DNA from: Noviherbaspirillum denitrificans | GTDB lineage: Bacteria > Pseudomonadota > Gammaproteobacteria > Burkholderiales > Burkholderiaceae_D | Reading direction: 5' to 3' | Assembly: GCF_002211445.1 (NCBI RefSeq) | Contig: NZ_LSTO01000001.1 | Coordinates: forward strand, 753,481-794,532 | DNA: 41,052 nucleotides | Shown: piece by piece, positions 18,857 to 39,458 of the stretch | Numbering within the stretch: the first letter of the stretch is position 1 | How the letters are laid out: each line of letters opens with the position of its first letter | Translations under genes and position numbers: made by a program | Notes under the pieces: model-generated | Told to the model about the DNA's origin: nothing | Seen by the model: the letters and a program-made list of their open reading frames with translations, nothing else | Database searches by the model: none

Positions 18857-19651
18857 CTACGCCCGCTTGAGATTACTCGTAAACGACGGCGACCCCAGGC
18901 ACGCCACCGACAGCTGCCCTGCAGCATCCTGCAGCATCGCCGCCAGTTCCAGCATGCGCTGTTCAGTCAACCGGCTGGAAGGTCCGGCAATGCTCACCAC
19001 GCCGATCGGCGCGTTGGTGGACGGATGACGGATCGGCGCTGCCATCGCCGACATGCCCGGCGAGGAGGATTCGATCACCATGCCGTAGCCGCGTTTGCGC
19101 GCGGCCTGCAGCGCCTTGAGTACCTGCGCCACGGTCTGCGGCGCATTCGGGCCGAACTCACCCTTCTTGCCGAAGCCCTGGCGCGAGAGGATTACCATCG
19201 CGTCTTCATCGCTGAGGCAGGACAGCCACGCATGGCCGCTGGCAGTGCAGAACAGTGCCGCTTCTTTCCCCATGTCCGGGTCATAGCGCAGGCCGGAACG
19301 CGCGCCCTGTGCCTTGGTAACGAAGATCAGCTTCTCGCCATCGATCACGCCGAGGCGGACCAGTTCGCCCGAGGCTACCGCCAGGCGGTCGAGGACGGGC
19401 TGGGCGACATCGACGACGCCGCTGGCCGACAGGTAGATCAATGCGATCGATGCCAGCTTCAGCGTCAGCTGGTATTCACCGTGATCGGCGTGCTGGCGGA
19501 CGTAGCCCTGCTCGCTCAGCATCGCCAGCAGGCGGTGAGCGCCGCTGCGCGGGATGTTCAACCGGTCCGCGATTGCGTGCAGCGGAAGCGGGCCGCCGGT
19601 CATCGCGAGCAGTTCCATGATGGCGAGGCCGCGGTCGAGGTTACCGCTCAT
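18857..19651 (-). CDS. IclR family transcriptional regulator
   Basis: This 264-residue regulator has an N-terminal winged helix (LDRGLAIMELLAMTGGPLPL, then ADRLNIPRSGAHRLLAMLSEQGYV). A C-terminal IclR effector domain includes GMSAMAAPIRHPSTNAPIGVVSIAGPSSRL. IclR proteins bind small acids and act as repressors or activators of nearby catabolic genes. It is followed, reading upstream, by a 15-bp perfect palindrome 43 bases before its ATG, and similar sequences occur at two other promoters of this cluster. Autoregulation plus control of the TIM-barrel/AroE-like operon is the simplest reading. It converges with regA with 11 bases between stops. Confidence 0.9.
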   Translation of the reverse strand: MSGNLDRGLAIMELLAMTGGPLPLHAIADRLNIPRSGAHRLLAMLSEQGYVRQHADHGEYQLTLKLASIALIYLSASGVVDVAQPVLDRLAVASGELVRLGVIDGEKLIFVTKAQGARSGLRYDPDMGKEAALFCTASGHAWLSCLSDEDAMVILSRQGFGKKGEFGPNAPQTVAQVLKALQAARKRGYGMVIESSSPGMSAMAAPIRHPSTNAPIGVVSIAGPSSRLTEQRMLELAAMLQDAAGQLSVACLGSPSFTSNLKRA

Positions 19652-19708: not shown

Positions 19709-19725
19709 GCAACCTCACTTTTTGA

Positions 19726-24205: not shown

Positions 24206-25462
24206 TCAGGCGGATTCCATCTTGCAGCCGATCTCGCCCTGGTTGCCAAAGAGCTTGTCGAGTTCGCTCGGGACCTTCGGCTCCTGCGCGATTGCATCGA
24301 GCCAGTCCCACTTGTCGGTGATCTTGTCCTTCACCTTGAACACCATGCAGCGACGCAGCATCTGGTGGTCCCATGAGCGGTAGTAGGCGGGCACCGCGCC
24401 GTCCTGGAGACGCGCCAGTTCGAGGCCGCCCACGATGTCGTTACCCTTGACCGACTTCGCCTGCTCGATGCCCGCCATCAGCGAGCGCATCGAGAACCAG
24501 CCCAGCCACACCTTGTCCGCCGGCGGCTTGCCATGCTTGGCGATGTAATCCTTGACGAAAGCCTTGTCCGCCGCCGGGTTGTCAGACGACGAGAAGTGCC
24601 ACGGCTTGCCGTAGTAACCGGTCGCGACTTCAGGCGTCAGGTCCCACAGGTCGGAGTCGCCGATGATCGGGCAGGCGACCGGGATGCGGCCCTTCATGCC
24701 CATCTCGTTGTATTGCTTGAGGAAGTTCGACAGATCGCCGCCCGGCAGGCCGAGCACGACGACGTCCGGCTTCGCCTGGCGGATCTTCAGGATGAAGGAG
24801 CTGAAATCGGTGGTGCCGAGCGGCGTCGCATCGTTGCCGACTTCAGTGCCGCCCGCTTCGTTGAGCATCGCCTTCATCGATGCATACACATCCTGGCCGT
24901 ATGCATAGTTGGCGCACATGAAGTACCACTTCTTGCCCACGCCCAGCAGCGACGGCGCAAGCGCGCGTGCAGCCACCGGCGTGGTGGTCAGCACGCGGAA
25001 GGTATAGGGATTGCATTCCTTGCCGGTGATGTCGCGGCTTGCGGCATTCGGCGCGATGTACGGGACCTTCGAGCGGCGTGCGACGGATGCCATCGCCAGC
25101 GATGTTGCACTGTTGGTGCCGCCGATCACGGCCACCACCTTGTCGGAGTCGATCAGCTTCTGCATGTTCTGCTGTGCCGACTGCGGGTTCGGCTCGTCGT
25201 ACCACACCAGCTCGACCTTCTTGCCGAGGATGGTGCCGCCCGCCTGGTCGAGCGCCATCTTGATGCCCGTTGCAAGATGCTCGCCCTGCGCGGTCCAGAC
25301 GCCCTGCTTGGCGAATACGAGGCCGATCTTGGTCGTCTGCGAGGTCTGTGCGCGCAGGATGGCGGGTGCGCCGAGCGCGAGGGTGCCGCCGACGGCTGCC
25401 TTGCCGGCGAGCGCGAGGACATCGCGGCGGGAGAAGTGCTTCTTGCTGGATTCGTCGTTCAT
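24206..25462 (-). CDS. Orphan ABC substrate-binding protein with Tat signal
   Basis: This 418-residue protein has the type I periplasmic binding fold of HAAT systems (TKIGLVFAKQGVWTAQGEHL, then ELVWYDEPNPQSAQQNMQKLI). The export signal is of Tat type: SRRDVLALAG at residues 11-20, then GGTLALGAPAILRA before the mature chain. A Tat signal implies that it folds in the cytoplasm. No permease or ATPase gene lies nearby. The complete liv operon 17 kb away has its own LivK. It may share that channel or use one encoded elsewhere. The ATG at 25462 has GGAG upstream and matches the signal layout. Regulatory element B1 and a candidate -10 box at 25528-25533 precede it. Confidence 0.87.
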   Translation of the reverse strand: MNDESSKKHFSRRDVLALAGKAAVGGTLALGAPAILRAQTSQTTKIGLVFAKQGVWTAQGEHLATGIKMALDQAGGTILGKKVELVWYDEPNPQSAQQNMQKLIDSDKVVAVIGGTNSATSLAMASVARRSKVPYIAPNAASRDITGKECNPYTFRVLTTTPVAARALAPSLLGVGKKWYFMCANYAYGQDVYASMKAMLNEAGGTEVGNDATPLGTTDFSSFILKIRQAKPDVVVLGLPGGDLSNFLKQYNEMGMKGRIPVACPIIGDSDLWDLTPEVATGYYGKPWHFSSSDNPAADKAFVKDYIAKHGKPPADKVWLGWFSMRSLMAGIEQAKSVKGNDIVGGLELARLQDGAVPAYYRSWDHQMLRRCMVFKVKDKITDKWDWLDAIAQEPKVPSELDKLFGNQGEIGCKMESA

Positions 25463-25527: not shown

Positions 25528-25533
25528 ATAGTA
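25528..25533 (-). promoter_or_regulatory. Candidate -10 box for the orphan binding protein
   Basis: TACTAT on the minus strand, 40.5 bp from the centre of palindrome B1, the same distance as at the other two element-B promoters. It matches TATAAT at four of six positions. The transcript would start near 25521, giving a leader of about 59 bases. I looked for it at this place after seeing the spacing elsewhere. Confidence 0.4.
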
Positions 25534-25553: not shown

Positions 25554-25594
25554 GGTTTCGCAAAATTCATGGGGTCATGAGTTATCGGAAAACA
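25554..25594 (-). promoter_or_regulatory. Conserved palindromic element B1
   Basis: On the minus strand this segment reads as element B: outer arm TTCCGATAAC, inner palindrome TCATG-ACCC-CATGA, outer arm TTTTGCGAAACC. It is almost identical to copies at 34789-34827 and 36095-36133 (it has two extra Ts near the left end and a few changes). It lies between the orphan binding protein and the Gfo/Idh gene, eight bases from candidate operator A3. Confidence 0.75.
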
Positions 25595-25601
25595 TCCGGA
25601 T

Positions 25602-25617
25602 TTGGAATCGTGTTCAA
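25602..25617. promoter_or_regulatory. Candidate IclR operator A3 (binding protein / Gfo-Idh divergent promoter)
   Basis: TTGGAAT-CGT-GTTCAA is an imperfect inverted repeat. It shares the exact 14-base string TTGGAATCGTGTTC with operator A1 (there on the minus strand) and its layout with A2. It lies 56 bases before the Gfo/Idh start. This links the second half of the cluster to the IclR regulator. Confidence 0.55.
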
Positions 25618-25672
25618 CTCCTGAATACCGAAAAAGAACAAAAAAATGCCAATTCCGGATAGAGGAAGACAC

Positions 25673-26710
25673 ATGTCAAAAATGAACGTGGCAGTCATCG
25701 GCGCAGGCGCCATCGGCCGCACGCATATCGATCTCGCGCTGCGCCACGACGCCGTACAGCTGGCAGCCATTGCCGATCCCACCGACGCCGCTCGCGAACT
25801 TGCGCAGACGCGCGGCGTGCGCTGGTTTCCCGATTACCGCGAAATGCTGGACACCGTGCGGCCGCAGGCGGCGATCGTCGCGACCCCGAACGCGACCCAT
25901 GTTTCCGTCGGCGTCGATTGCATGGAACGCGGCGTGCCCGTGCTCGTCGAGAAGCCCATCGCCGACACCGTGGAAGAAGCACAGCATTTGTGCGACGCAG
26001 CGGAGCGCAGCGGCCTGCCCCTGCTGGTCGGCCACCACCGCCGCCACAATCCCATCATCCGCAAGGCGCGCGAAATCATCGCCAGCGGCCGCCTCGGAAT
26101 GCCGGTCAGCGCCAACGTGATGGCGACCTGGCTGAAGCCGGATTCCTACTTCGACGTCGAATGGCGCCGCAAACCGGGTGGTGGCCCGATCCTGATCAAC
26201 CTGATCCATGAAATCGACCTGCTGCGCGTGCTGCTGGGCGAAATCGACAGCCTGCAAGCGATGCGCTCGAGCGCGGCGCGCGGTTTTGAAGTCGAAGATA
26301 CGGCCGCAATCATGCTGCGCTTTCGCAATGGCGCGCTGGCCACGATCACGCTGTCCGATGCGACCGTTGCGCCGTGGATCTGGGACCTGGCCAGCGGCGA
26401 GTCCACGCATTATTGCCGGCAGCACGTGAATTCGCATTTCCTGTGCGGGACGGACGCCTCACTGACGCTCCCTTCGCTGGATATCTGGAGCTACCGCGAC
26501 AGGCGCGGCTGGCAGGATCCGCTGACGCTGGAGCGCACCACCCCGCATGAAGGCAATCCCTACGTCGAACAGCTGCGCCACCTGCGCGCCGTGGTCGAAT
26601 GCAAGGAGCCGCCGGTCTGCTCGGGCATCGATGCGATGCGCACGCTGGAAGCGACGCTCGCGGTGCACGCGTCCGCCGATTCCGGCAAGCGGGTAATGCT
26701 GCACATATAG
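25673..26710 (+). CDS. Gfo/Idh/MocA family oxidoreductase
   Basis: This is a 345-residue NAD(P)-dependent dehydrogenase of the glucose-fructose oxidoreductase/inositol dehydrogenase family. The N-terminal Rossmann motif is VAVIGAGAIGRTHIDLA, and the conserved EKPIADT contains the catalytic-region Lys. VGHHRRHNPIIRKAREII and GGGPILINLIHEIDLLR (His near the active site) follow. These enzymes oxidise sugars, inositols or related polyols. The ATG at 25673 has GAGGAAGACAC upstream, so I preferred it over the ATG at 25646. It starts a plus-strand operon with a TIM-barrel protein, an SDR and an ExuT-like permease, which reads as a sugar-acid or cyclitol pathway. Confidence 0.9.
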   Translation: MSKMNVAVIGAGAIGRTHIDLALRHDAVQLAAIADPTDAARELAQTRGVRWFPDYREMLDTVRPQAAIVATPNATHVSVGVDCMERGVPVLVEKPIADTVEEAQHLCDAAERSGLPLLVGHHRRHNPIIRKAREIIASGRLGMPVSANVMATWLKPDSYFDVEWRRKPGGGPILINLIHEIDLLRVLLGEIDSLQAMRSSAARGFEVEDTAAIMLRFRNGALATITLSDATVAPWIWDLASGESTHYCRQHVNSHFLCGTDASLTLPSLDIWSYRDRRGWQDPLTLERTTPHEGNPYVEQLRHLRAVVECKEPPVCSGIDAMRTLEATLAVHASADSGKRVMLHI

Positions 26711-26735
26711 AATTTTTCACCACCTGGGACGTAAC

Positions 26736-27548
26736 ATGAAACCCGTCTTTTCTCTCGCCCAACTGACCGCACTGGACGTGCCGCCGCCGGACATGGTGTC
26801 GCTCGCGCACCGCACCGGTTATGACTATGCCGGCGTGCGCCTGTTGCCGGCTGCGCCCGGCGGCGCGGCCTATCCGCTGATGAACGATCCCGCCATGCTG
26901 CGCGAAACGATCGCGCGCATGGAAGACACCGGCACCCGCATTTTCGACCTGGAAATGATTCGCGTCGGCGAAGGTTTCAAGGCGGAGGCATTCCTGCCCT
27001 TCCTCGAAACCGGTGCAAAACTCGGTGCGAAGGCGATGCTGGTCGCGGGAGATGACGCCAATGAAGAGCGCATGACCGAATCCTATGCGTCGCTGTGCGA
27101 CCTCGCATGGAAGTACGGCATTACGTCCGACCTGGAATTCATGCCGTGGACCGCGGTGAAGGACCTCGCCAGCGCGCTGCGTATTGTGCGCGGCGCCAAC
27201 CGCCCGGGCTGCGGGATCCTGGTCGACGTGCTCCACTTCGCGCGCTCCGGCAGCAAGCTGGAAGATCTCGACGGCATCCCGCGCGAATGGCTGCACTACG
27301 CGCAAATGTGCGACGGCCCGGCCAAGGGCCCGGATACCGTGCAGGGCCTGATCGACGCCGCGCGCGGCGACCGCTTGCTGCCGGGCGAAGGCGAACTGGA
27401 CATCGCGGCCATCTTCAGCCGCCTCCCCGCCGACCTGCCGATCAGCATGGAAATCCCGAGCGACCGCCGCTATCCGGTTCTCGGCGCCGACCGCTGGGCC
27501 GCCGACGTGCTGGCAGCCGGCCAGGCCACGGCGAGGACCTTCCGATGA
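26736..27548 (+). CDS. Xylose isomerase-like TIM-barrel protein (copy 2)
   Basis: This 270-residue TIM-barrel protein is a paralogue of the one at 20595-21422. Common segments include FLETGAKLGA, LVAGDDANEER, FMPWTAVKD, ILVDVLHFARSGS, MCDGPA, LPGEGELDI and SMEIPSD. Likely metal ligands are the Glu of LEFMPW, the Asp and His of VDVLHF, the Asp of MCDGP and the Glu of MEIP. Gfo/Idh plus TIM barrel plus SDR is a common trio in inositol or sugar-acid pathways, where the barrel acts as dehydratase, isomerase or epimerase. The stop overlaps the SDR start as ATGA. The exact reaction is unknown. Confidence 0.85.
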   Translation: MKPVFSLAQLTALDVPPPDMVSLAHRTGYDYAGVRLLPAAPGGAAYPLMNDPAMLRETIARMEDTGTRIFDLEMIRVGEGFKAEAFLPFLETGAKLGAKAMLVAGDDANEERMTESYASLCDLAWKYGITSDLEFMPWTAVKDLASALRIVRGANRPGCGILVDVLHFARSGSKLEDLDGIPREWLHYAQMCDGPAKGPDTVQGLIDAARGDRLLPGEGELDIAAIFSRLPADLPISMEIPSDRRYPVLGADRWAADVLAAGQATARTFR

Positions 27549-28351
27549 GCGCGGCCGGCAACACAACGCGCGTGCTCGTCACCGGCGCGACCGGCGGCAT
27601 CGGCCGCGCGACCTGCGTGGAACTCATCCGGCAAGCAAAATCCGAAGGGAAAGCCGTTTCCATCGCCGCCGTCGCATCGCGCAGCGGCGCAGCGCTGGAA
27701 GCGCTGACAGCGGAACTGAATTCGCTCGGCGCCCGTGCAATCGGCCTGCATGCGAATCTCGCCGATGCCGCATCCTGCGTGCAACTGATCGATGATGCGA
27801 CCGCCTTCTGCGGCGGCCTGGACGCACTGGTATCAAACGCCGGCATCACGCGCCCCGCCCCTCTTGCCGACCAGACCGTTGAAGACTGGGACACCGTCTT
27901 TTCGGTAAATACCCGCGCAACCTGGCTGCTGGCACGCGCGGCACGCAAGGCCCTGGCCGAGAGCCGCGGCGCCATCGTCGCCGTCGCATCGATGTCCGGC
28001 ATGTACCCGCATCCCGGCTATGGCGCGTATTCGGCATCCAAGGCAGCGCTGCTCATGCTGTGCCGCCAGCTTGCACAGGAATGGGCGGCTGACGGAATCC
28101 GGGTCAACACGGTGTCGCCAGGCATGATCCGCACGCCGCTGACCGAGCGCGTGTACCAGAACGAAGAAGTGGCCGCGCGGCGTGAAGCAATGGTTCCGCT
28201 CGGACGCATCGGCCGTCCGGAAGACATCGCGCGCGCCGTCGCCTATCTGCTGGGTGACCATGCCGCCTACGTCACGGGTGAAAACCTGCGCGTGGACGGC
28301 GGGCTTTGCGACCGCTTCCTCGGCACGATTCCGGGAGTGGCGCGCGCCTGA
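27545..28351 (+). CDS. Short-chain dehydrogenase/reductase (SDR)
   Basis: This is a 268-residue classical SDR. The cofactor motif is VTGATGGIGRATCVEL, then SNAG, catalytic Ser in VASMSGMY, and YSASK for YxxxK. The C-terminal VTGENLRVDGGL is the FabG-like ending. AAVASRSGAA after strand 2 has Arg near the adenosine ribose, so NADP use is plausible. A longer open frame runs upstream into the TIM-barrel gene, but the ATG at 27545 overlaps that gene's stop by four bases and gives the family N-terminus. It is different from the SDR at 23340. Substrate unknown. Confidence 0.87.
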   Translation: MSAAGNTTRVLVTGATGGIGRATCVELIRQAKSEGKAVSIAAVASRSGAALEALTAELNSLGARAIGLHANLADAASCVQLIDDATAFCGGLDALVSNAGITRPAPLADQTVEDWDTVFSVNTRATWLLARAARKALAESRGAIVAVASMSGMYPHPGYGAYSASKAALLMLCRQLAQEWAADGIRVNTVSPGMIRTPLTERVYQNEEVAARREAMVPLGRIGRPEDIARAVAYLLGDHAAYVTGENLRVDGGLCDRFLGTIPGVARA

Positions 28352-28422
28352 CCATGTATCCTTGCCGGAGCCTTGGGACAGGCGCCGGCAGCTCAACTGC
28401 AACAGAACGAGAGAAAAGAACA

Positions 28423-29748
28423 ATGAACCGCTTCACCGCAACCACGGTCGGCAACCAGCCGTCCGGTACCGCATTCGAAAAACTCCGGAATGCTTTTGCC
28501 ATCGGCAAGGTCCGCTGGACCATGCTCGCGATGGTATTTTTTGCAACCACGCTCAACTACATCGACCGCGCCGCGCTGGGCATCATGCAACCGGTCCTTG
28601 CCAAGGCGATGAGCTGGACCGCGCAGGACTACGCCAATATCAATTTCTGGTTCCAGGCAGGCTATGCGATCGGCTATGTGCTGCAGGGCCGCCTGATCGA
28701 CCGCATCGGCGTCAAGACCGGATTTGCGATGGCCGTGCTGGTCTGGAGCGCCGCCGCTGCCGCTCACGGCATGGTGGCGTCGGTGGTCGGATTCATGGTG
28801 TGCCGCTTCGTGCTCGGCCTGGCCGAGGCGGGCAACTACCCATCTTGCATCAAGACCATTCGGCAGTGGTTCCCGGTCGGTGAACGCGCGATTGCGACCG
28901 GCGTCTTCAACGCCGGCACCAATGTCGGCGCGATGGTGACCCCGCTGCTGATTCCGTTCGTCATGACAGTGTGGGGCTGGCAGGCGGCGTTCTTCCTCAT
29001 CGGTGCCGTCGGCCTGGTATGGCTTGCGATCTGGCTGAAGTCTTACTACAACCCCGAAAATCATCCGAGCGTGCGCCGCTCCGAACTGGACTACATCCAG
29101 CACGGCCATGAACCGGTGCAGCCGCAAGTGTCGATGGCCAGGGTGCTGCGCCTGCGCGCGACCTGGGCCTACGCGCTGGGCAATGCACTCACTGCGCCGG
29201 TGTTCTGGTTCTACCTCTACTGGCTGCCGCCCTACCTCAACAAGCAGTACAACCTCGGCATCAGCGTCGTGCAGATGGGCCTGCCGCTGATCGTGATCTT
29301 CCTCGCCGCCGATTTCGGCAGCGTGTTCGGTGGCGTGTTGTCATCCTCGATGATCGGCCGCCGCATGAAGCCGATCACCGCCCGCCTGCTGTCGATGTTC
29401 CTCTGCGCGCTGTGCATTACGCCGGTCGTGCTCGCCTCGTCCGCCAGCGGCGTCTGGACCGCGGTGTTCTACATTTCGCTGGCCATTGCCGCACACCAGG
29501 CATGGACGGTGAACCTGTGGAGCCTGGCGATGGACATGGCGCCGAAGAATGCGGTCAGTTCCGCATTCGGCGTCGGCGGGACTTGCGGCGCGATCGGCGG
29601 CATGTTCATGACGCAGCTGGTGGGGTATGTGCTGACGACGACGGACAACAACTATTCGGTGCTGTTCATGATGGTGCCGGCGGCTTACTTCATTGCGCTG
29701 GTGTGGGTGTACCTGGTGGCGCCGCGGAAGGTTGAAGTGGTGGCTTGA
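28423..29748 (+). CDS. MFS importer, ACS family (ExuT-like)
   Basis: This 441-residue permease has twelve membrane helices and belongs to the anion:cation symporter branch that includes the hexuronate transporter ExuT. Marks are TTLNYIDRAALGIMQPVL in helix 1, GRLIDRIGVKTGF in loop 2-3, RFVLGLAEAGNYPSCIKTIRQWFP in helices 4-5 and FNAGTNVGAMVTPLLIPF. Organic-acid sugars such as hexuronates or similar acids are typical substrates. The ATG at 28423 has GAGAGAAAAG upstream. An earlier frame start is shadow. It ends the Gfo/Idh operon and is followed by a strong terminator. Confidence 0.88.
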   Translation: MNRFTATTVGNQPSGTAFEKLRNAFAIGKVRWTMLAMVFFATTLNYIDRAALGIMQPVLAKAMSWTAQDYANINFWFQAGYAIGYVLQGRLIDRIGVKTGFAMAVLVWSAAAAAHGMVASVVGFMVCRFVLGLAEAGNYPSCIKTIRQWFPVGERAIATGVFNAGTNVGAMVTPLLIPFVMTVWGWQAAFFLIGAVGLVWLAIWLKSYYNPENHPSVRRSELDYIQHGHEPVQPQVSMARVLRLRATWAYALGNALTAPVFWFYLYWLPPYLNKQYNLGISVVQMGLPLIVIFLAADFGSVFGGVLSSSMIGRRMKPITARLLSMFLCALCITPVVLASSASGVWTAVFYISLAIAAHQAWTVNLWSLAMDMAPKNAVSSAFGVGGTCGAIGGMFMTQLVGYVLTTTDNNYSVLFMMVPAAYFIALVWVYLVAPRKVEVVA

Positions 29749-29771
29749 GTGTTTCGTCATTGACGGACTGG

Positions 29772-29812
29772 CGCCCGCAAGCGAAATGCGTTGTTCGCTT
29801 GCGGGCGTTTTT
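29772..29812 (+). terminator. Strong intrinsic terminator after the ExuT-like gene
   Basis: A perfect 14-bp GC-rich stem (29772-29785 with 29794-29807) and an eight-base loop are followed by TTTTT at 29808-29812. It lies 24 bases after the MFS stop and ends the 25673-29748 operon. Confidence 0.9.
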
Positions 29813-29832
29813 GCGTCATGTCTCGTCTTCCG

Positions 29833-29870
29833 TCCCCCGTCATCCCTGCGAAGGCGGGGATGACGGGGGA
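29833..29870. repeat. Palindromic REP-like repeat (CGTCATCCC type)
   Basis: A perfect 14-bp inverted repeat (29833-29846 with 29857-29870) surrounds a ten-base centre tgcgaaggcg. The core CGTCATCCCTGCGAAGGC resembles the short dispersed palindromes found in intergenic regions of many proteobacteria. Outer TCTCGTC/GACGAGA bases extend the symmetry. No function is evident. Only one copy was noticed here. Confidence 0.6.
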
Positions 29871-29968
29871 CGAGAATGACAACGCCGCAGAACTCTCCCG
29901 CCTGCAAGCAACACAGAAATCAAGTATTAGCTGCCGCATCAAACCCACCCTCGTTGCAAGGGCGCGGC

Positions 29969-29995
29969 AAAAGAAAAAGGCCGGCGATGCCGGCC
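29969..29995 (-). terminator. Intrinsic terminator after etfA
   Basis: On the minus strand GGCCGGC-ATC-GCCGGCC is followed by TTTTTCTTTT. It lies ten bases after the etfA stop, so it ends the etf transcript. The plus-strand terminator at 29772-29812 lies back to back with it. Confidence 0.85.
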
Positions 29996-30005
29996 CCTCA
30001 ATCAA

Positions 30006-30935
30006 TCAGGCCAGTGCGGCCACGAGCTGCGGGACAGCCTCGAAAAGATCACCCACCAGCCCATAATCCGCCACCGAGAAAATCGGCGCTTCCGGGTCCT
30101 TGTTGATGGCCACGATCACCTTCGAATCCTTCATGCCGGCGAGATGCTGGATCGCACCGGAGATACCGACGGCGACATACAGTTGCGGCGCGACGATTTT
30201 GCCGGTCTGGCCGACCTGCCAGTCATTCGGCACGAAGCCGGCATCGACTGCAGCGCGCGATGCGCCCATTGCCGCGTTGAACTTGTCAGCCAGGGGTTCG
30301 AGGATCTTGAAGTTTTCCGCCGAACCCAGGCCGCGGCCGCCGGACACGACGACCTTGGCCGATGCGAGGTCGGGACGGTCGGACTTGGCGACGGCGCGCG
30401 ACACGAAAGCGGATTGGCCGCTGTCCTCAACCGCCTCGACCTTCACGATGTCAGCGGAGCCGCCAGCCGGCGCCGCATCAAACGCCGTCGTGCGCACGGT
30501 GATGACCTTCACTGAATCGGCCGTCTGCGCAGTGGCAATCGCATTGCCCGCATAGATCGGTCGCTCGAACGTATCGGCCGAGACGACCCGTGTGATCTCG
30601 GATACCTGCGCGACATCGAGCAGGGCCGCGACGCGCGGAAGGACGTTCTTGCCGCCTGCGGCTGCGGGCGCAAGGATGTGTGAATAGCCGCCGGCCACGG
30701 CCAGCACTTGGGCGGCCACGTTTTCAGCGAGCCCGTCCGCAAATTGCGGCGCATCGGCCACGAGCACTTCGGCGACACCGGCAATGCGTGCCACCGCTTC
30801 GGCGACGGCACCGCAGTTGTGGCCGGCGACCAGGACATGGACATCGCCCGCGCACTGGCGGGCGGCGGTGATGGTGTTGAGGGTGCCCGCATTCAGCGAA
30901 GCATTGTCGTGTTCAGCAATGACGAGTGCGACCAT
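30006..30935 (-). CDS. etfA: Electron transfer flavoprotein alpha subunit
   Basis: This is a 309-residue ETF alpha subunit (FixB family). ETF takes electrons from acyl-CoA dehydrogenases and passes them to ETF-ubiquinone oxidoreductase. The FAD-binding C-terminal domain is intact: [64 protein letters not shown] and [10 protein letters not shown]. The ribosome binding site (GAAGAAG) is weak. It follows etfB on the minus strand with a 54-codon gene between. Likely partner is the acyl-CoA dehydrogenase at 36200, plus others in the genome. Confidence 0.96.
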
Positions 30936-30973
30936 AATCTTCTTCGGGTAGTGAGGTATGTTGAGAGGGGGGA

Positions 30974-31138
30974 TCAGCTGGCGGGAGCGAGGAAGGCATC
31001 CTGTTCGTTTTCGTCCGTCGTTTCCGGCGCCCAGCCCACCTTGCGGCGAATCTGTTCGGGGGAAGGCGGCGGTTCCGGGTGCGCCTGGCGTTGCTGCAGC
31101 CAGTTGCGAATGAGTTGCCGGGTCAATTGATTGTCCAT
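30974..31138 (-). CDS. Small 54-residue protein between etfB and etfA
   Basis: A 55-codon frame (ATG at 31138, TGA at 30974-30976) fills most of the 225-bp gap between etfB and etfA. It begins [18 protein letters not shown] and continues with a Pro-rich [17 protein letters not shown], ending in an acidic [12 protein letters not shown]. The start has AAGGGAG seven bases upstream, better than that of etfA. The protein is soluble, Gln/Arg-rich at the front and acidic at the end. I do not recognise a family. Its position suggests coexpression with ETF. Without it, etfA would have a long untranslated gap. Confidence 0.65.
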
Positions 31139-31160
31139 CGTGTGCTCCCTTGCAGGTTGC

Positions 31161-31922
31161 TCAGATCACCTTTGCTTCGTTCTTCAGCTTGTCGACCAGC
31201 GCGGCGACATCCGGCACCTTGATGCCGGCGGAACGCTTCGGCGGCTCGCTAACCTTCAATGTCTTCAGGCGCGGCGTGACATCGACGCCGAGGTCGGCCG
31301 GCTTGAGGGTATCGAGCTGCTTCTTCTTGGCCTTCATGATGTTGGGCAGCGTCACATAGCGCGGCTCGTTCAGGCGCAGGTCGGTGGTCACCACGGCCGG
31401 CAGTGCCAGCGACACGGTTTCCAGGCCACCGTCCACTTCGCGCGTCACGACGGCCTTGTCGCCTTCGATGCTGACCTTCGAGGCGAAGGTCGCTTGCGGC
31501 CAGCCCAGCAGCGCGGCCAGCATCTGGCCGGTCTGGTTGCAGTCGTCGTCAATCGCCTGCTTGCCCAAGATGATCAGTTGCGGCTGTTCCTTGTCGGCGA
31601 CGGCTTTCAACAGCTTGGCCACGGCCAGCGGTTGCAGTTCAAAATTTGAGTCGGTTGCGGTCTCGACCAGCACGCCGCGGTCGGCGCCGATCGCCATCGC
31701 GGTACGCAGGGTTTCCTGGCATTGCGTCAGGCCGCAGGACACCGCCACCACTTCGGTCACCTTGCCGGCTTCCTTGAGCCGGGTCGCTTCTTCAACGGCG
31801 ATTTCATCGAACGGGTTCATCGACATCTTGACGTTGGCGATGTCGACACCGCTGCCGTCGGACTTGACCATCACCTTCACGTTCGCATCGATCACGCGCT
31901 TGACGGGAACGAGCACTTTCAT
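31161..31922 (-). CDS. etfB: Electron transfer flavoprotein beta subunit
   Basis: This is a 253-residue ETF beta subunit, which binds AMP and docks the dehydrogenase. Key segments are [12 protein letters not shown] at the N-terminus, [44 protein letters not shown] and the signature [24 protein letters not shown] with the recognition loop. The start has GAGGTAACAC upstream. A terminator-like hairpin lies only 22 bases before the start codon, which makes its promoter arrangement unusual. Confidence 0.96.
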
Positions 31923-31943
31923 GTGTTACCTCGTAAGTTGGGA

Positions 31944-31977
31944 ATAAAAAATGCCGGATCCGCTCGGCGGATCCGGC
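31944..31977 (-). terminator. Terminator or attenuator between thiolase and etfB
   Basis: On the minus strand a perfect 10-bp stem (31968-31977 with 31953-31962), a five-base loop and ATTTTTTATT form a canonical intrinsic terminator. It lies 41 bases after the thiolase stop and 22 bases before the etfB ATG. There is little room for a separate promoter downstream of it, so it may act as a partial terminator that sets the etf level relative to aldehyde dehydrogenase and thiolase. Confidence 0.75.
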
Positions 31978-32018
31978 CAAGCAGCCTTGGAGGAGACGAG
32001 GCTGAGAGACATTCTTCG

Positions 32019-33218
<1,200 letters not shown>

Positions 33219-33237
33219 TCTTATCTTCCGTATTTGT

Positions 33238-34716
33238 TTAGCCCAGCGCGAACGGATTCGCGCGGTTGGGTTGCGTGGTGATCCACACGCTCTTGGTTTG
33301 CAGGTATTCCTTGATCGCTTCGGCGCCGCCTTCGCGGCCGATACCGCTGCGCTTGTAGCCGCCGAACGGCGTCGCGAACGAGGTCGCGCGGTAGTTGTTG
33401 ACCCAGACGGTGCCCGCGCGGATGCGCTCGACGCAATACAGCGCGCGGTGCAGGTCCCGCGTCCACACGGCGCCTGCCAGGCCATAGTTGGTGTCGTTGG
33501 CGATTTCCAGCGCTTCTTCCATGGTCTTGAAGCGGATCACCGACAGTACCGGGCCGAATACTTCTTCCTGCGCGATGCGCATGGAATTGTTGACGCCGGT
33601 GAAGATGGTCGGCGCCACGAACTGCCCCTGGCCATAGCCGGGACCCGTAATCGCATGGCCGCCGAGCACGCAGTTCGCGCCTTCATTCTTCGCGATGTCG
33701 ATATACGACAGCACCTTCTCGAAATGCGGGCGGTTGGAGATCGGGCCGATCTGGGTGTCCGGGTCGGACGGGTCGCCGATGCGTGCCTTCTTCACCTCAG
33801 CGACCAGCTTGTCGACGAATGCGTCGTGGATGGTGTCCTGCAGCAGCAGGCGCGAACCCGCCATGCAAGTCTGGCCGGCAGCACTGAAGATGCCGGCAAT
33901 CGCGCCCTTCACTGCCTGGTCGATGTCCGCATCGTCGAACACGATGTTGGCCGACTTGCCGCCGAGTTCCATCGTCACATGCTTGAAGTCCTTCGCGGCG
34001 GCGATGTTCACATGCTTGCCGCCGATCTCGCCGCCGGTGAACGCGATCTTTGCCACCAGCGGATGGCTCGACAGCGGCTCGCCGACTTCGGCGCCGTAGC
34101 CCGACACGACATTGACCACGCCCGGCGGGAAGCCGGCCTCGACGCACAGGCGGCCGAGTTCGTAGGTCGATGCGGAAGTGAATTCCGACGGTTTGAGCAC
34201 CATGGTGTTGCCCGCGGCCAGTGCCGGCGCAAGCTTCCAGATAGTCAGCGCGATCGGCGAATTCCACGGTGTGATCGCCAGCACCACACCCAGCGGTTCG
34301 TGGCGGGTGAAGTTGAACACGCCCGGCTTGGGCATCGGGATCACGTTGCCCATCACCTTGTCGGCGAGGCCGGCGTAGTAGTACACCCACTGCGCGGCGT
34401 GGCGCATCTGGCCCGCGACTTCGACGATCAGCTTGCCGTTGCTGCGCTGTTCGATGTGGCCGAGTTTTTCCGCATCGCGCTCGATCAGTGACGCCAGCTT
34501 GCGCAGCAGCGCGCCGCGATCGGTGGCGCTGAGGCTGGTCCAGGCCGTCGAATTGAACGCCTTGTGCGCGGCACGCACCGCGCGGTCGGCATCCTCGGCA
34601 TTGCTGCGCGGGACGCGCGCCCAGACCTCGCCCGAAAATGGCTCGACCTGGTCGATCCATGCGTCCGACGCCGGGTCGCACCATTCGTTGCCGATCAATT
34701 GTTGATAAGTGTTCAT
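33238..34716 (-). CDS. NAD(P)-dependent aldehyde dehydrogenase
   Basis: This 492-residue ALDH oxidises an aldehyde to the acid. The catalytic set is complete: Asn152 (ITPWNSP), Glu250 (MELGGKS) and Cys284 (GQTCMAG). KPSEFT and the EEVFGPVLSV segment are also typical. The cofactor loop reads FTGGEIGGKH instead of the common FTGS, a small deviation. The ATG at 34716 is preferred over an in-frame TTG at 34728. Context with a 3-oxoadipyl-CoA-type thiolase suggests a dicarboxylic semialdehyde such as 6-oxohexanoate as substrate. Element B2 and a candidate -10 box precede it. Confidence 0.9.
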   Translation of the reverse strand: MNTYQQLIGNEWCDPASDAWIDQVEPFSGEVWARVPRSNAEDADRAVRAAHKAFNSTAWTSLSATDRGALLRKLASLIERDAEKLGHIEQRSNGKLIVEVAGQMRHAAQWVYYYAGLADKVMGNVIPMPKPGVFNFTRHEPLGVVLAITPWNSPIALTIWKLAPALAAGNTMVLKPSEFTSASTYELGRLCVEAGFPPGVVNVVSGYGAEVGEPLSSHPLVAKIAFTGGEIGGKHVNIAAAKDFKHVTMELGGKSANIVFDDADIDQAVKGAIAGIFSAAGQTCMAGSRLLLQDTIHDAFVDKLVAEVKKARIGDPSDPDTQIGPISNRPHFEKVLSYIDIAKNEGANCVLGGHAITGPGYGQGQFVAPTIFTGVNNSMRIAQEEVFGPVLSVIRFKTMEEALEIANDTNYGLAGAVWTRDLHRALYCVERIRAGTVWVNNYRATSFATPFGGYKRSGIGREGGAEAIKEYLQTKSVWITTQPNRANPFALG

Positions 34717-34761
34717 CTTGGATTCCAATGCAAGGAAGAGGGGGCAGTCCGTATGCAGCGC

Positions 34762-34767
34762 ATCTTA
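34762..34767 (-). promoter_or_regulatory. Candidate -10 box for the aldehyde dehydrogenase operon
   Basis: TAAGAT on the minus strand, 40.5 bp from the centre of palindrome B2. It mirrors an identical TAAGAT on the plus strand at 34848-34853, and the surrounding bases are also mirrored (GCTCCGC-TAAGATGC and GCTCGCA-TAAGATGC). Transcription would start near 34755, about 39 bases before the ATG. Confidence 0.5.
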
Positions 34768-34788
34768 GCGGAGCATGTATGGCAACAG

Positions 34789-34827
34789 TGTTCCGATAAG
34801 TCATGACCCTATGATGTTTGCGAAACC
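34789..34827 (+). promoter_or_regulatory. Conserved palindromic element B2
   Basis: Outer arm TTCCGATAAG, inner TCATG-ACCC-TATGA and outer arm GTTTGCGAAACC. It differs from B3 (36095-36133) at two of 39 positions. It stands in the middle of the 163-bp divergent gap between the aldehyde dehydrogenase and the Bcr/CflA-type transporter. Mirrored -10 boxes lie at equal distance on both sides, so one bound regulator could serve both promoters. Confidence 0.8.
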
Positions 34828-34847
34828 CGCGCATTGGCACGCTCGCA

Positions 34848-34853
34848 TAAGAT
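34848..34853 (+). promoter_or_regulatory. Candidate -10 box for the Bcr/CflA-type MFS gene
   Basis: TAAGAT on the plus strand, 40.5 bp from the B2 centre. Transcription would begin near 34860, which excludes the ATG codons at 34775-34814 and supports the GTG at 34880 as the translation start. Confidence 0.5.
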
Positions 34854-34879
34854 GCATTCACCCTGATTGCACATCGACC

Positions 34880-36112
34880 GTGACCCCATCCACTCCCGCT
34901 TTCCGCAACGCGCTGCCCGTCACCGCCATCCTGGTGCTCCTGTTCGGGACGCAACCGGTCGCGATGGATCTCTACCTGCCCGCGCTGCCGGAAATCGCCG
35001 GCCGCTTTGGCGGCAGGATGGGCCAGGCGCAATGGACGCTGACCGCCTACCTTCTCGCATTCGGCATTTCGCAGCTGTTCGTGGGCGCATTGTCCGACCG
35101 CTTCGGGCGCCGGAAAACACTGCTGTGCGGACTCGCCTGCTACATCGCCGCCGCAGCGATCGGCGCACTGGCACCAAGTCTCGGCGTGCTGGTCGCCAGC
35201 CGCGCGCTGCTTGGCGCGGCCACCGCCGCCTGTGTGACCTCGGCGCGCGCCGTGATTCGCGACTGCTATTCCGGGCAGGATGGCATGGGCATCATGGCGC
35301 GCAGCATGACGGGCATGAGTGCAATCGCGCTGGTCAGCCCCGTGATCGGCGGCGTCGCGACCAGCTTGCTGGGCTGGACCAGCACCATTGCCATGATCGC
35401 CGTGTTCGGCGTCGCGGCGTGGATTGCCGTCTACACAACGTTTACGGAAACGGCAACCACCACCGGCGGCAGCGCACGCATCGGTATAGGCGTGCTGCTG
35501 TGCCATCCGCAATTCCTGGCGTCGTCCTTCCTCGCCGGCTGCAGCTTCAGCGGCGCGGTGTCCTTCCTGCTGCTGTCGCCCTTCATCTTCATCGGCAAAT
35601 TCGGCATGTCACGCATCGCCTACGGCCTCGTGCCCGCGATTTGCTCGCTCGCCTTCCTGAGCGGGACGGTGTTTTGCCGCCATTACCTTGCGCGCGTACC
35701 GGTGCCCGAGGTGATCCGGCTGGCCGCCATGCTGTCCGTGGCCGGCGGCATCGGCCAACTGCTGCTGTGGCATGCCGGCATCCTGACGCCCTGGTCGATT
35801 CTCGCCAGCCAGTGCCTCTACATGTTTGGCCACGGCATCCACCAGCCCTGCGGACAGGCAGGATCGGTGGCGCCATTTCCGCAGTTCGCCGGGCGAGCCG
35901 CCGCGGTTTCCGGATTCATCATCATTGCGACCGCGTTCGCAGTCGGACAAGCCGTATCGCACAGCAGCCTGCCGCCGGCGCAGACGCTGATGACGGTACT
36001 GGCGCTGGCAGCATGCGCAATCGCCTGCCTCGGCTGGCTTGCGATTCCGCGCGCCTACCGCCTCGCCGAAGCCGGGCAGGCGCGCGCGGCAATGTGTTCC
36101 GATAACTCATGA
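34880..36112 (+). CDS. MFS transporter, Bcr/CflA drug-resistance type, GTG start
   Basis: This 410-residue transporter has twelve helices. TQPVAMDLYLPALPEIAGRFG near the N-terminus and GALSDRFGRRKTLLCGL in loop 2-3 are hallmarks of the Bcr/CflA 14.1 group of proton-driven exporters. The start is uncertain. The frame opens at 34775, but the conserved regulatory element B2 and its -10 box lie inside that stretch. I therefore take the GTG at 34880 (N-terminus TPSTPAFRNALPV). It has no clear ribosome binding site and a leader of about 20 bases. The last codons (CSDNS and stop) lie inside element B3, so the next promoter's operator starts within this gene. It may export a toxic intermediate. Confidence 0.82.
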   Translation: MTPSTPAFRNALPVTAILVLLFGTQPVAMDLYLPALPEIAGRFGGRMGQAQWTLTAYLLAFGISQLFVGALSDRFGRRKTLLCGLACYIAAAAIGALAPSLGVLVASRALLGAATAACVTSARAVIRDCYSGQDGMGIMARSMTGMSAIALVSPVIGGVATSLLGWTSTIAMIAVFGVAAWIAVYTTFTETATTTGGSARIGIGVLLCHPQFLASSFLAGCSFSGAVSFLLLSPFIFIGKFGMSRIAYGLVPAICSLAFLSGTVFCRHYLARVPVPEVIRLAAMLSVAGGIGQLLLWHAGILTPWSILASQCLYMFGHGIHQPCGQAGSVAPFPQFAGRAAAVSGFIIIATAFAVGQAVSHSSLPPAQTLMTVLALAACAIACLGWLAIPRAYRLAEAGQARAAMCSDNS

Positions 36113-36133
36113 CCCCATGATGTTTGCGAAACC
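36095..36133 (+). promoter_or_regulatory. Conserved palindromic element B3
   Basis: Outer arm TTCCGATAAC (36097-36106), inner perfect palindrome TCATG-ACCC-CATGA (36107-36120) and outer arm GTTTGCGAAA (36122-36131). Its first 18 bases are also coding sequence for the end of the upstream transporter. A further TTCCGAT half-copy occurs at 36148-36154. It precedes the acyl-CoA dehydrogenase operon. Confidence 0.8.
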
Positions 36134-36153
36134 TACTGCGCAAATGCTTCCGA

Positions 36154-36159
36154 TATGAT
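36154..36159 (+). promoter_or_regulatory. Candidate -10 box for the acyl-CoA dehydrogenase operon
   Basis: TATGAT (five of six matches to TATAAT) begins 40.5 bp from the B3 centre. The expected -35 position holds ACCTAC, a poor match, and that hexamer overlaps the end of the palindrome arm. This fits activation by a protein bound at B3. Transcript start would be near 36166, 34 bases before the ATG. Confidence 0.55.
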
Positions 36160-36199: not shown

Positions 36200-37354
36200 A
36201 TGGATTTCCACCTCAATGAAGACCAGCGCGCATTCGCTGATTCCGTGCGCCGCTTTGCCACCCAAGAGCTGGCGGCTGGCGCCCTCGAACGCGCGCATTC
36301 GAACGAATATCCCTGGGACGTCGCACGCAAGCTGAGCGAACAGGGCCTGCTCGGCATCACCATGAAGGAAGAAGACGGCGGCATCGGCGGTTCGCTGATG
36401 GATGCGGTGATCGCGATCCAGGAACTGGCACTCGTCTGCCCGAAGAGCGCGGACGTGGTCCAGGCCGGCAACTTCGGTCCGATCCGCACCTTCGCCGAAT
36501 ACGCATCGCCTTACTTGAAGGAACGCTTCCTCGGCGACCTGCTCGCGGGCAAATCCCTGATCGCGCTCGGCATGAGCGAACCCGACGCCGGCTCCGCCGT
36601 CACCGAACTGAAGACCAGCGCCGTGGAAGACGGCGACCATTTCATCATCAACGGCTCCAAGGTGTTTTCCACGCACAGCCCGCACGCCAACATCTTCCTG
36701 GTCTATGTGCGTTTCGGCCCGGGCCTGAACGGCATCGGCTCGGTCATCGTCGAACGCGGCACGCCGGGTTTCGAAGTGGGCCAGCCGTCGCCGTTCATGA
36801 GCGGCGAGGAATGGTCGCAGCTTTACTTCACCGACTGCCGCATCCCGAAGGAAAACGTGCTGCTCGGTCCGGGCGGATTCAAGAAGCAGATCTCCGGCTT
36901 CAATGTCGAGCGCATCGGCAATGCCTCGCGCGCGCTGGCGGTCGGACGGCATGCCTTCAACGTCGCCCGTGAACACTGCCTCAACCGCAAACAGTTCGGC
37001 CGCTTGCTGTGCGAATTCCAGGGCCTGCAATGGAAGTTCGCCGAAATGGCGCTCAAGCTCGAATCCGCGCAGATGCTCTTGTACCGCGCCGCGACCAATG
37101 CCGACGGCGCCCTGCCCTCCGCCTATGAAACCGCGATTGCCAAGCTGGCGTGCAACCAGGCCGGCTGGGAAGTTTCCAACGACGCGCTGCAGGCGATGGG
37201 CGGCTACGGTTACTCGACCGAATCGCTGGTCGAGTACTGTGTCAAGCGTACCCGCGGCTGGATGATTGCCGGCGGCTCGATCGAAATCCTGAAGAACCGC
37301 ATCGCGGAAGATGTATTCGAGCGCCGCTTCGACCAGCGTCCGGCAAAGGTCTGA
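36200..37354 (+). CDS. Acyl-CoA dehydrogenase with displaced catalytic Glu
   Basis: This 384-residue flavoenzyme introduces a 2,3-double bond in an acyl-CoA and reduces ETF. The N-terminal helix MDFHLNEDQRAFADSVRRFA, the FAD-binding ALGMSEPDAGSAV and INGSKVFSTHSPHANIF, and the C-terminal QAMGGYGYSTES are standard. The usual catalytic Glu of the C-terminal YEGT motif is missing: the site reads IAGGSIEIL with Gly358 there. In its place Glu237 in FNVERIGNA occupies the position used as base by isovaleryl-CoA and long-chain acyl-CoA dehydrogenases (inferred by eye). This suggests an active enzyme for an unusual, branched or bulky substrate. It starts a three-gene operon under element B3. Confidence 0.9.
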   Translation: MDFHLNEDQRAFADSVRRFATQELAAGALERAHSNEYPWDVARKLSEQGLLGITMKEEDGGIGGSLMDAVIAIQELALVCPKSADVVQAGNFGPIRTFAEYASPYLKERFLGDLLAGKSLIALGMSEPDAGSAVTELKTSAVEDGDHFIINGSKVFSTHSPHANIFLVYVRFGPGLNGIGSVIVERGTPGFEVGQPSPFMSGEEWSQLYFTDCRIPKENVLLGPGGFKKQISGFNVERIGNASRALAVGRHAFNVAREHCLNRKQFGRLLCEFQGLQWKFAEMALKLESAQMLLYRAATNADGALPSAYETAIAKLACNQAGWEVSNDALQAMGGYGYSTESLVEYCVKRTRGWMIAGGSIEILKNRIAEDVFERRFDQRPAKV

Positions 37355-37355
37355 A

Positions 37356-39458
37356 ATGAAAATGAACGAACTCATGCACGGATTGCGCGGCCCGGCCCTC
37401 GGTCAAGCGCTGCTGAACCCGAAGAAGATCGCGCTCGTCGGCGTGTCCGACGACCTGTCCAAGACCACCGCCCGCCCGCTGCGCTTCCTGCGCACCGCGG
37501 GTTACGGCGGCACGATCTACACCATCAACCCCACACGCAAGGTGGTGCAGGGCGAGCCGGCCTACCCTTCGCTGTCAGCGCTGCCGGAAGTACCGGACCA
37601 CGCCTTCATCCTGACCAACTCCGAACTCGCTATCGATGCGGTCGAGGAATGCGGCAAGCTCGGCATCCCGGTTGCCACCATCATGGCCGCCGGCTTCTCG
37701 GAATCCGGTCATGAAGGCGTCAAGCGCGAACAGCGCCTGAAAGCAATTGCAAAGGACATGGGCGTACGCGTGCTGGGCCCGTCCAGCCTCGGCGTGATCA
37801 ATGTGCGCGAAAAACTCGTGCTCACCGCCAACGCTGCGTTCGCCGAAGCCGACCTGCCTGCCGGCGGCATCTTCTGCGCATCGCAGAGCGGCAGCATGCT
37901 GGGCGCGCTGACCTCGCGCGGCCGTGCGCGCAACATCGGCTTTGCCGGCCTGGTGTCCGTGGGCGGGGAAAGCGACCTGTGCATCGGCGAAATCTGCGAA
38001 GCAACGCTGGATGATCCGAACGTCACCGGCTACATGCTGTTCCTCGAATCGATGCGTCATGCGGATGCGCTGCACCGCTTCGCGCTTGGCGCCGCTGCGC
38101 GCGGCAAGCCGGTCGTGGCGTTCAAGCTCGGCCGCTCCGAAGTCGCCGCCGAACTCGCGGTATCGCACACCGGCGCGCTGGCCGGCGAAGACAGCGTAGC
38201 CGACACCTTCTTCAGCGACTGCGGCATCGCCCGCGTCGAGACGCTGGATGGCTTGCTCGAAGCAATGCCGCTGCTGGCGCGCATCCCGGCGAGCGCGTCA
38301 CATCACGGCGGTCGCAAGCCGACTGTCGGCGTGGTGACCACGACAGGCGGCGGCGCGGCGATGGCCGTCGACCAGCTCGGCATCCGTGGCGTCAACGTGA
38401 TCCCGCCATCGAAAGAAACGCTGAAACGCCTTGCCGAGCGCGGCATCGAAGCCTCCGGCGCCGCCATCGTCGACCTGACGCTGGCCGGCACCAAGTACGA
38501 GGTGATGAAAGCCACGCTCGAAGTGATGCAATCCGCACCGGAATTCGACATGGTGCTCGCCACCGTCGGTTCATCCGCGCGCTACCAGCCAGACCTCGCC
38601 GTGGCACCGGTGATCGACAGCGCGCATGCCGGCAAGCCGCTCGCCTGCTTCGTGGTGCCTGAAGCGCCCGACGCATTGAAGCGCCTGACCGAGGCCGGCG
38701 TGCCGAGCTTCCGCACGCCGGAAGCCTGCGGCGATGTGATCGCGGCAGCCTTCCGCCGCCGCGCACCGGTTCCGCAACTGCCGCCGCCGCCCGCAGCCAA
38801 GGGCGAACGCATGCTGGACGAAGCGAGCGCCTACAAGATGCTCACGCCGCTGGGCGTGCCGCACGCGGCGTACGCCGTGCTGGCAGTGGATGCGCCTGTC
38901 CCGGCGCTGCCCTTCCCCTTCCCGGTCGTGGTCAAGGTGCTGCATGAAGAGATCGCGCACAAGACCGATGTCGGCGGCGTGATCCTGAACGTGGACAGCA
39001 CGGCGTCGCTGGCCGAGGCAATGGCCCGCATCAAGCTGAACGTCGAGAAGAATCGTCCCGGCACCGTCGTCAGGCAGGTGCTCGTGCAAGCGATGAGCAA
39101 GGGCCTCGGCGAAGTGCTGGTCGGCTTCCGCCGCGATGCCGACGTCGGCCCGGTGGTGATGCTGGCCGCTGGCGGCGTGCTGACCGAGATCTACCGCGAC
39201 CGCGCGCTGCGCCTGGCGCCGGTCACCGTGGAAGTTGCTCGCGAGATGGTCAAGGAAGTGCGCGCCCTGGAAGCGCTCGCCGGTTATCGCGGCCGACAGG
39301 AAGGCGACCTGGAAGCCGTTGCGCAGGCAGTGGCTGCTTTCTCGCAACTTGCCTTGCTCAAGGACGAGGTCGTGCTCGAAGCGGAAATGAACCCGCTGAT
39401 CGTGCGGCCCAAGGGTGACGGCGCGCTGGCTGTCGATGCGCTGGTTCGACTGGGATGA
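37356..39458 (+). CDS. Acyl-CoA synthetase, ADP-forming type (acetate-CoA ligase family)
   Basis: This is a 700-residue protein of the NDP-forming acyl-CoA synthetase family, which makes an acyl-CoA from acid, CoA and ATP through a phospho-His. The N-terminal CoA-binding Rossmann domain starts PKKIALVGVSDDLSKT. A succinyl-CoA-ligase-like domain contains GVVTTTGGGAAM, and SHTGALAGED includes the predicted phospho-His271. The C-terminal ATP-grasp domain has PFPVVVKVLHEEIAHKTDVGGV and EMNPLIVRP. The ATG at 37356 begins right after the dehydrogenase stop (TGAAATG), so the pair is coupled. In this operon it is the obvious candidate to activate the acid substrate for beta-oxidation. Confidence 0.88.
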   Translation: MKMNELMHGLRGPALGQALLNPKKIALVGVSDDLSKTTARPLRFLRTAGYGGTIYTINPTRKVVQGEPAYPSLSALPEVPDHAFILTNSELAIDAVEECGKLGIPVATIMAAGFSESGHEGVKREQRLKAIAKDMGVRVLGPSSLGVINVREKLVLTANAAFAEADLPAGGIFCASQSGSMLGALTSRGRARNIGFAGLVSVGGESDLCIGEICEATLDDPNVTGYMLFLESMRHADALHRFALGAAARGKPVVAFKLGRSEVAAELAVSHTGALAGEDSVADTFFSDCGIARVETLDGLLEAMPLLARIPASASHHGGRKPTVGVVTTTGGGAAMAVDQLGIRGVNVIPPSKETLKRLAERGIEASGAAIVDLTLAGTKYEVMKATLEVMQSAPEFDMVLATVGSSARYQPDLAVAPVIDSAHAGKPLACFVVPEAPDALKRLTEAGVPSFRTPEACGDVIAAAFRRRAPVPQLPPPPAAKGERMLDEASAYKMLTPLGVPHAAYAVLAVDAPVPALPFPFPVVVKVLHEEIAHKTDVGGVILNVDSTASLAEAMARIKLNVEKNRPGTVVRQVLVQAMSKGLGEVLVGFRRDADVGPVVMLAAGGVLTEIYRDRALRLAPVTVEVAREMVKEVRALEALAGYRGRQEGDLEAVAQAVAAFSQLALLKDEVVLEAEMNPLIVRPKGDGALAVDALVRLG

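What the first reader, a model, noticed from the sequence alone, without database searches (positions are those of the whole stretch)
25554..36159. A 39-bp palindromic element repeated three times with fixed promoter geometry
Element B (outer arms TTCCGATAAC and GTTTGCGAAA around TCATG-N4-CATGA) occurs at 25554-25594, 34789-34827 and 36095-36133, all between genes or at promoters. Conservation is near-identical for B2/B3 and strong for B1. A candidate -10 hexamer starts exactly 40.5 bp from each palindrome centre: TACTAT (25528-25533, minus), TAAGAT (34762-34767, minus), TAAGAT (34848-34853, plus) and TATGAT (36154-36159, plus). The -35 places are poor and abut the palindrome arm, as expected for an activator. 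One unknown regulator would thus control the orphan binding protein, aldehyde dehydrogenase/thiolase, an exporter and the acyl-CoA dehydrogenase operon. Two of the boxes were found after I knew the spacing, so the statistics are not blind.
Basis: partly seen in the sequence, partly recalled or inferred. Interest (0 to 1): 0.8.

Follow-up and report, generated by a model that had tools for sequence, protein, structure and literature searches.

The report
Paired LysR operator of one regulon
A 39-base palindrome at the start of several metabolic and transport genes looks like the docking site of one LysR-type switch protein, which would turn on a scattered set of uptake and breakdown genes together; it is a well-supported new regulon of a known kind.

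Summary
The 39-mer is best read as two inverted LysR-type T-N11-A boxes, centres 21 bp apart, at about -63 and -42 from the inferred start: the textbook LysR recognition and activation sites.

The likely regulator is a GcvA-type LysR encoded last in the fourth copy's operon. Its homologues in 6 of 391 other family genomes all lie beside homologues of regulated genes. A profile finds the operator at E<=1e-3 in those genomes and in none of the other 385 (partly in-sample). With each genus left out in turn the elements score 22-41 bits; unrelated loci reach at most 15.9. The binding protein (B1) and permease (B4) are neighbours in 21 of 23 other genomes, so the element ties together a split transporter.

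My written prediction for two more distant genomes failed genome-wide and was only partly met locally. Binding and transcript starts are untested.

The parts
25554..25592 (-). Element B1, two inverted T-N11-A boxes, before the Peripla_BP_6 binding protein
25528..25533 (-). -10 TACTAT, 40.5 bp from B1 centre
24206..25462 (-). Orphan ABC solute-binding protein (Peripla_BP_6), target of B1
25600..25620 (.). Separate IclR-type box (GAGTTGAACACGATTCCAAAT on minus), 15 of 21 identical to the box at the same promoter in relatives; argues that IclR is not the binder of B1
34789..34827 (+). Element B2, shared by two divergent promoters
34762..34767 (-). -10 TAAGAT toward ALDH-thiolase-etfB-etfA
34848..34853 (+). 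-10 TAAGAT toward the MFS exporter
33238..34716 (-). Aldehyde dehydrogenase
32019..33218 (-). 3-oxoadipyl-CoA thiolase (PcaF-type, 727 bits against a cut-off of 597)
31161..31922 (-). EtfB by 86% identity of its homologue in G119, which has its own element; name from gene order and recall, no family scan
30006..30935 (-). EtfA
34880..36112 (+). MFS transporter, nearest NCBIfam model Bcr/CflA efflux (179 bits, below the cut-off of 201); stop lies inside B3
36095..36133 (+). Element B3 before acyl-CoA dehydrogenase
36154..36159 (+). -10 TATGAT, 40.5 bp from B3 centre
36200..37354 (+). Acyl-CoA dehydrogenase
37356..39458 (+). Acyl-CoA synthetase of the ATP-grasp / succinyl-CoA-ligase-like type
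18857..19651 (-). IclR regulator, rival candidate, judged not to bind element B

Best explanation
Element B is the operator of a LysR-type (GcvA-subfamily) activator, most likely the LysR at C1:3486843-3487754. Two inverted T-N11-A boxes with centres 21 bp (two turns) apart would hold the two dimers of a LysR tetramer at about -63 (recognition site) and -42 (activation site), the promoter-proximal box abutting a promoter with a -10 but no good -35. With its ligand bound, the tetramer would place RNA polymerase at the -10 box 40.5 bp from the centre. It would turn on the binding protein (B1), ALDH-thiolase-etfBA and exporter (B2, both directions), acyl-CoA dehydrogenase and CoA ligase (B3), and livHMGF-SDR, possibly with the LysR gene itself (B4). 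SHOWN: copies, geometry, conservation, co-occurrence. INFERRED: binding, tetramer, activation, ligand, operon extents.
For: Four copies only, with a -10 at the same spacing before five gene starts; the fourth copy was blind. T3, A15, T24 and A36 are invariant in 11 aligned elements; over 17 sites the right T-N11-A is kept in 17, the left in 15. LysR homologues at E<=1e-75 in 6 of 391 other family genomes, all 6 beside homologues of regulon genes. Profile hits at E<=1e-3 in exactly those 7 of 392 genomes. Two sites found by a model built without them: G007 E=0.0013, about 11 kb from its LysR, and G119 E=0.042, 80 bp upstream of the acyl-CoA dehydrogenase homologue. Left-out groups: 22-41 bits, null maximum 8.4-13.5 in 27 loci; with the whole own genus left out the four own copies score 27.3-28.9 and G007's 41.2, null maximum 15.9. 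A -10 of >=4/6 at 40-42 bp in 15 of 18 promoters examined; the other 3 (orthologues) have TTGTCA-N17-CACACT in the same phase. Three acyl-CoA dehydrogenase neighbourhoods without a match to this LysR score 5.4, 1.5 and -3.0 bits. GcvA cut-off passed, 296 against 288.
Against: My written prediction failed genome-wide: two LysR genomes from other families gave no model hit at E<=0.5; local profile hits of 25.8 and 18.5 bits lie in the LysR neighbourhood (null maximum with that profile 12.4), and only one of the two has a -10 of >=4/6 at 40-42. Most relatives' sites were found by looking near the LysR or the acyl-CoA dehydrogenase, so the 7-of-7 match is partly in-sample; four further genomes have profile hits at E 0.0015-0.018 (stricter filters). 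In G119 the etfB site scores 22.4 only when read in the opposite orientation (15.4 as aligned). Side and offset (40-42) in relatives were chosen after seeing them. The LysR gene is not divergent from a target here. No binding or expression data.
Confidence: 0.83

Rival explanations
1. Element B is bound by another regulator (for example the second LysR at L012:13868-14785, or a distant one), and the nearby GcvA-type LysR merely shares the neighbourhood.
For: The second LysR also lies in the B4 region; a homologue (50%) stands in one relative's cluster (G092). T-N11-A boxes do not tell LysR proteins apart. Binding untested.
Against: A homologue of the second LysR was matched in 1 of the 6 fetched family neighbourhoods, against 6 of 6 for the GcvA-type LysR. 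Caveat: my simple gene caller misses genes (it missed the GcvA-type LysR itself in two neighbourhoods, where the search found it).
Confidence: 0.12
2. The cluster's IclR regulator (18857-19651) binds element B.
For: Its homologue accompanies the binding-protein cluster in 21 of 23 loci.
Against: Those 23 loci have no element: best match 22 of 35, in 1 locus, and profile maxima of at most 15.9 bits. 21 of the 23 carry instead a palindrome like GTTGAATGCTATTCCAA (>=12 of 17) before the binding protein, which the window also has at 25600-25620, apart from B1. No homologue of this IclR was matched near the element in the 6 family genomes.
Confidence: 0.03
3. A dispersed repeat or recently copied promoter fragment without a regulator.
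For: B3 and B4 are identical over 43 bp, GTG through CCTAC; own copies are far closer to each other (33-35 of 35) than to those first seen in relatives (20-24 of 35).
Against: Only four copies, with the -10 spacing kept while the DNA between diverges, and diverged versions in other genera. Copying may explain the near-identity but not the conservation.
Confidence: 0.02

Closest known systems
LysR-type RBS/ABS operators, e.g. BhbR1 of Pigmentiphaga kullae (PMC12016517; passages seen)
   Same: T-N11-A box usually near -65, second site at the -35 region; footprint with inducer -75 to -33, nearly the span inferred here (-72 to -33)
   Different: There the activation sites are described as putative low-affinity sites; here both boxes are alike, inverted and form one palindrome
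GcvA / AmpR branch of LysR regulators
   Same: The candidate passes the NCBIfam GcvA subfamily cut-off; its best solved relatives by sequence are a glycine cleavage activator (8y6u) and AmpR chains. A single ~38-bp AmpR operator made of two LysR motifs is recalled, not checked: the primary paper was not held
   Different: No glycine-cleavage or beta-lactamase gene among the genes directly downstream of the four copies
ThnR at close divergent promoters (PMC4834489; passages seen)
   Same: A LysR activating two close divergent promoters, as B2 would
   Different: ThnR has a primary site for each promoter; B2 is one symmetric site facing both

Membership tests
LysR-type regulator (candidate protein) | HTH_1 plus LysR_substrate domains | tested here: met
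LysR-type regulator (candidate protein) | Tetramer in solution or on DNA | not testable with these tools
   none
LysR operator | T-N11-A recognition box | tested here: met
   invariant in 11 aligned elements; right box 17 of 17, left 15 of 17
LysR operator | Recognition site near -65 and activation site at the -35 region | tested here: met
   about -63 and -42 from -10 positions; transcript starts not mapped
LysR operator | LysR gene divergent from its target (the common arrangement, not obligatory) | tested here: not met
   codirectional, 137 bp after the SDR of the B4 operon
LysR operator | Direct protein binding | not testable with these tools
   none
GcvA subfamily | NCBIfam NF008352 cut-off | tested here: met
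   296 against 288 bits
GcvA subfamily | Control of glycine cleavage genes | not tested
   no search for gcv targets was made
Dispersed repeat | Many copies in unrelated places | tested here: not met
   four copies
IclR operator | Element present where the IclR homologue is | tested here: not met
   no element in 23 loci, of which 21 hold the IclR homologue

The most novel reading that the evidence does not exclude
The operator is a symmetric LysR site whose activation half matches its recognition half, so the tetramer sits pre-set in its activating position and one site can drive both flanking promoters; and copying of this compact 39-43 bp cassette brought a transporter that had split into two loci 2.7 Mb apart under a regulator that does not seem to control it in relatives.
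Probability: 0.3. Interest if true: 0.6.

Novelty: new member of a known kind. Interest (0 to 1): 0.48.

Why it matters
It names a regulator, its operator and a testable regulon in a genome for which I had no experimental data, shows how a split ABC transporter may be kept under joint control, and offers a symmetric LysR operator with a measurable promoter phase as a test of how recognition and activation sites differ.

Tried and rejected
My first pattern had wrong spacers and found nothing. Patterns of the element with up to 3 mismatches found nothing in 59 relatives (consensus), 14 congeners (symmetric degenerate pattern, which in the own genome found 3 of the 4 copies) or 391 other family genomes (degenerate pattern); these groups overlap. 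Only a profile showed the diverged versions. IclR as binder was rejected. Matches of 20 of 35 are not significant alone: unrelated loci reach 22. Ligand and pathway stay open: PcaF-type thiolase, acyl-CoA dehydrogenase, Etf and CoA ligase suggest oxidation of a dicarboxylic or aromatic-derived acid, but nothing tests it. A LysR tree was poorly resolved (4 of 8 inner branches open, two very long outgroups) and is not used. Weak profile hits at E 0.0015-0.018 in G178, G321, G125 and G204, and at 0.22-0.45 in G422, were not followed up. Paper searches, the ones aimed at this regulon, listed 4 and 1 papers, none on it by title and abstract start (listings only; one search listed none; others were on LysR, AmpR and GcvA mechanism); the library omits most subscription journals. 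PMC5595328 was seen in passages and not used. Structure prediction was not run.

Full report
Observation. Searches of the genome with the consensus, a looser palindrome and a profile agree on four strong copies. The fourth, B4, at C1:3492158-3492192 minus, lies between a shikimate-dehydrogenase-like gene and livH and carries TATGAT at the same 40.5 bp toward livH. For the five own promoters the mean match to TATAAT is 4.4 at offset 40 and at most 3.0 at any other offset from 18 to 99; 0 of 200,000 random-offset draws reached it. The other three sides of the four copies (B1 toward Gfo/Idh, B3 and B4 outward) have none.

Regulon. B1 precedes a Peripla_BP_6 binding protein with no permease gene beside it. 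B2 stands between ALDH-thiolase-etfB-etfA and an MFS exporter; B3 precedes acyl-CoA dehydrogenase and a CoA ligase; B4 precedes livH, a fused permease-ATPase-ATPase protein, an SDR and a LysR gene. In 23 loci of named genomes with a homologue of the binding protein, livH is adjacent in 21 and a homologue of the window's IclR is present in 21. So binding protein and permease are two halves of one transporter that is split here, and both halves carry element B.

Regulator. The acyl-CoA dehydrogenase was found at E<=1e-120 in 6 of 99 other genomes. In G007, G029 and G068 a LysR like that of the B4 locus stands beside it. A search of 392 family genomes found that LysR at E<=1e-75 in six others; all six neighbourhoods hold homologues of the acyl-CoA dehydrogenase, CoA ligase, MmgE/PrpD or Etf genes. 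Two more, from other families, also stand beside the acyl-CoA dehydrogenase and MmgE/PrpD homologues. The LysR passes the NCBIfam GcvA cut-off, and its N-terminal DNA-binding region is well conserved among the seven.

Operator. Ungapped relatives of the element, 20-24 of 35 identical, lie in the CoA ligase/acyl-CoA dehydrogenase or etfB promoter regions of G119, G092, G029, G114 and G068. A profile of nine, run on 13 genomes I chose, then found two new sites in LysR neighbourhoods, G007 (E=0.0013) and G119 (E=0.042); its next hits, in genomes with and without the LysR, are at 0.3 or weaker apart from the reversed B1. With G007, G119, the three g16 genomes or G068 left out of training in turn, their elements score 22-41 bits against null maxima of 8.4-13.5 in 27 loci, 516 kb. 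For G007 that training kept the own copies, of the same genus; with the whole genus left out, the four own copies score 27.3-28.9 and G007's two best 41.2 and 38.2, null maximum 15.9. Further sites emerged, including tandem second elements in G029, G114 and G092. Over 392 genomes E<=1e-3 occurs only in the seven with the LysR; four others have hits at 0.0015-0.018. The seven are partly in-sample; the other 385 are not.

Anatomy. Eleven columns are invariant in 11 elements; T3-A15 and T24-A36 are exactly T-N11-A. With six weaker sites added, the right box is intact in 17 of 17, the left in 15 of 17. Box centres lie 10.5 bp either side of the palindrome centre; if the -10 spans -12 to -7 they fall at about -63 and -42. 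Papers place the LysR recognition box near -65 with an activation site at the -35 region (PMC4834489 and PMC12016517, passages). In 15 of 18 promoters examined a hexamer of >=4/6 sits at 40-42 bp; the other three, orthologous, have TTGTCA-N17-CACACT in the same phase. Where both sides faced genes in relatives I took the side toward the CoA ligase, where the fit is, so relatives are weaker evidence than B4.

Against. I wrote down beforehand that further LysR genomes would carry a profile hit and a -10. Two turned up. Neither had a hit at E<=0.5. Local scans gave 25.8 and 18.5 bits in the LysR neighbourhood, above that profile's null maximum of 12.4, while three acyl-CoA dehydrogenase neighbourhoods without a match to this LysR gave 5.4, 1.5 and -3.0. 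One of the two (G706, toward the acyl-CoA dehydrogenase) had a -10 of 4/6 at offset 40; G696 had none. So the operator has drifted there, or these sites are chance.

Verdict. A LysR-type activator operator, well supported by comparison and unproven at the bench. The kind is known; the alike inverted boxes and the regulon membership are what is new here, and the two paper searches aimed at it listed nothing on it.

Noticed in passing
window 25600-25620: IclR-type palindrome like that before the binding protein in 21 of 23 other loci, next to but separate from B1: this promoter may answer to two regulators.
   Followed up: partly
window 19695-19729: Profile hit of 18.8 bits between the IclR gene and the gene upstream, containing TTTGGAATGCAA; probably an IclR-type box, not element B, but not tested.
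   Followed up: no
window 36148-36159 and L003:1473-1484: TTCCG(A/C) directly before TATGAT is shared by B3 and B4 (and nearly by B2 left) although the DNA between it and the element differs; reason unknown.
   Followed up: no
B3 (window 36094-36136) and B4 (C1:3492153-3492195): Identical over 43 bp, GTG through CCTAC, far more alike than the operators of relatives: recent copying or gene conversion?
   Followed up: no
L054, L067, L068, between CoA ligase and acyl-CoA dehydrogenase genes: Dyad CATGAGTTTTTCTCATG, a near-ideal T-N11-A box, inside a second tandem element before the acyl-CoA dehydrogenase promoter.
   Followed up: partly
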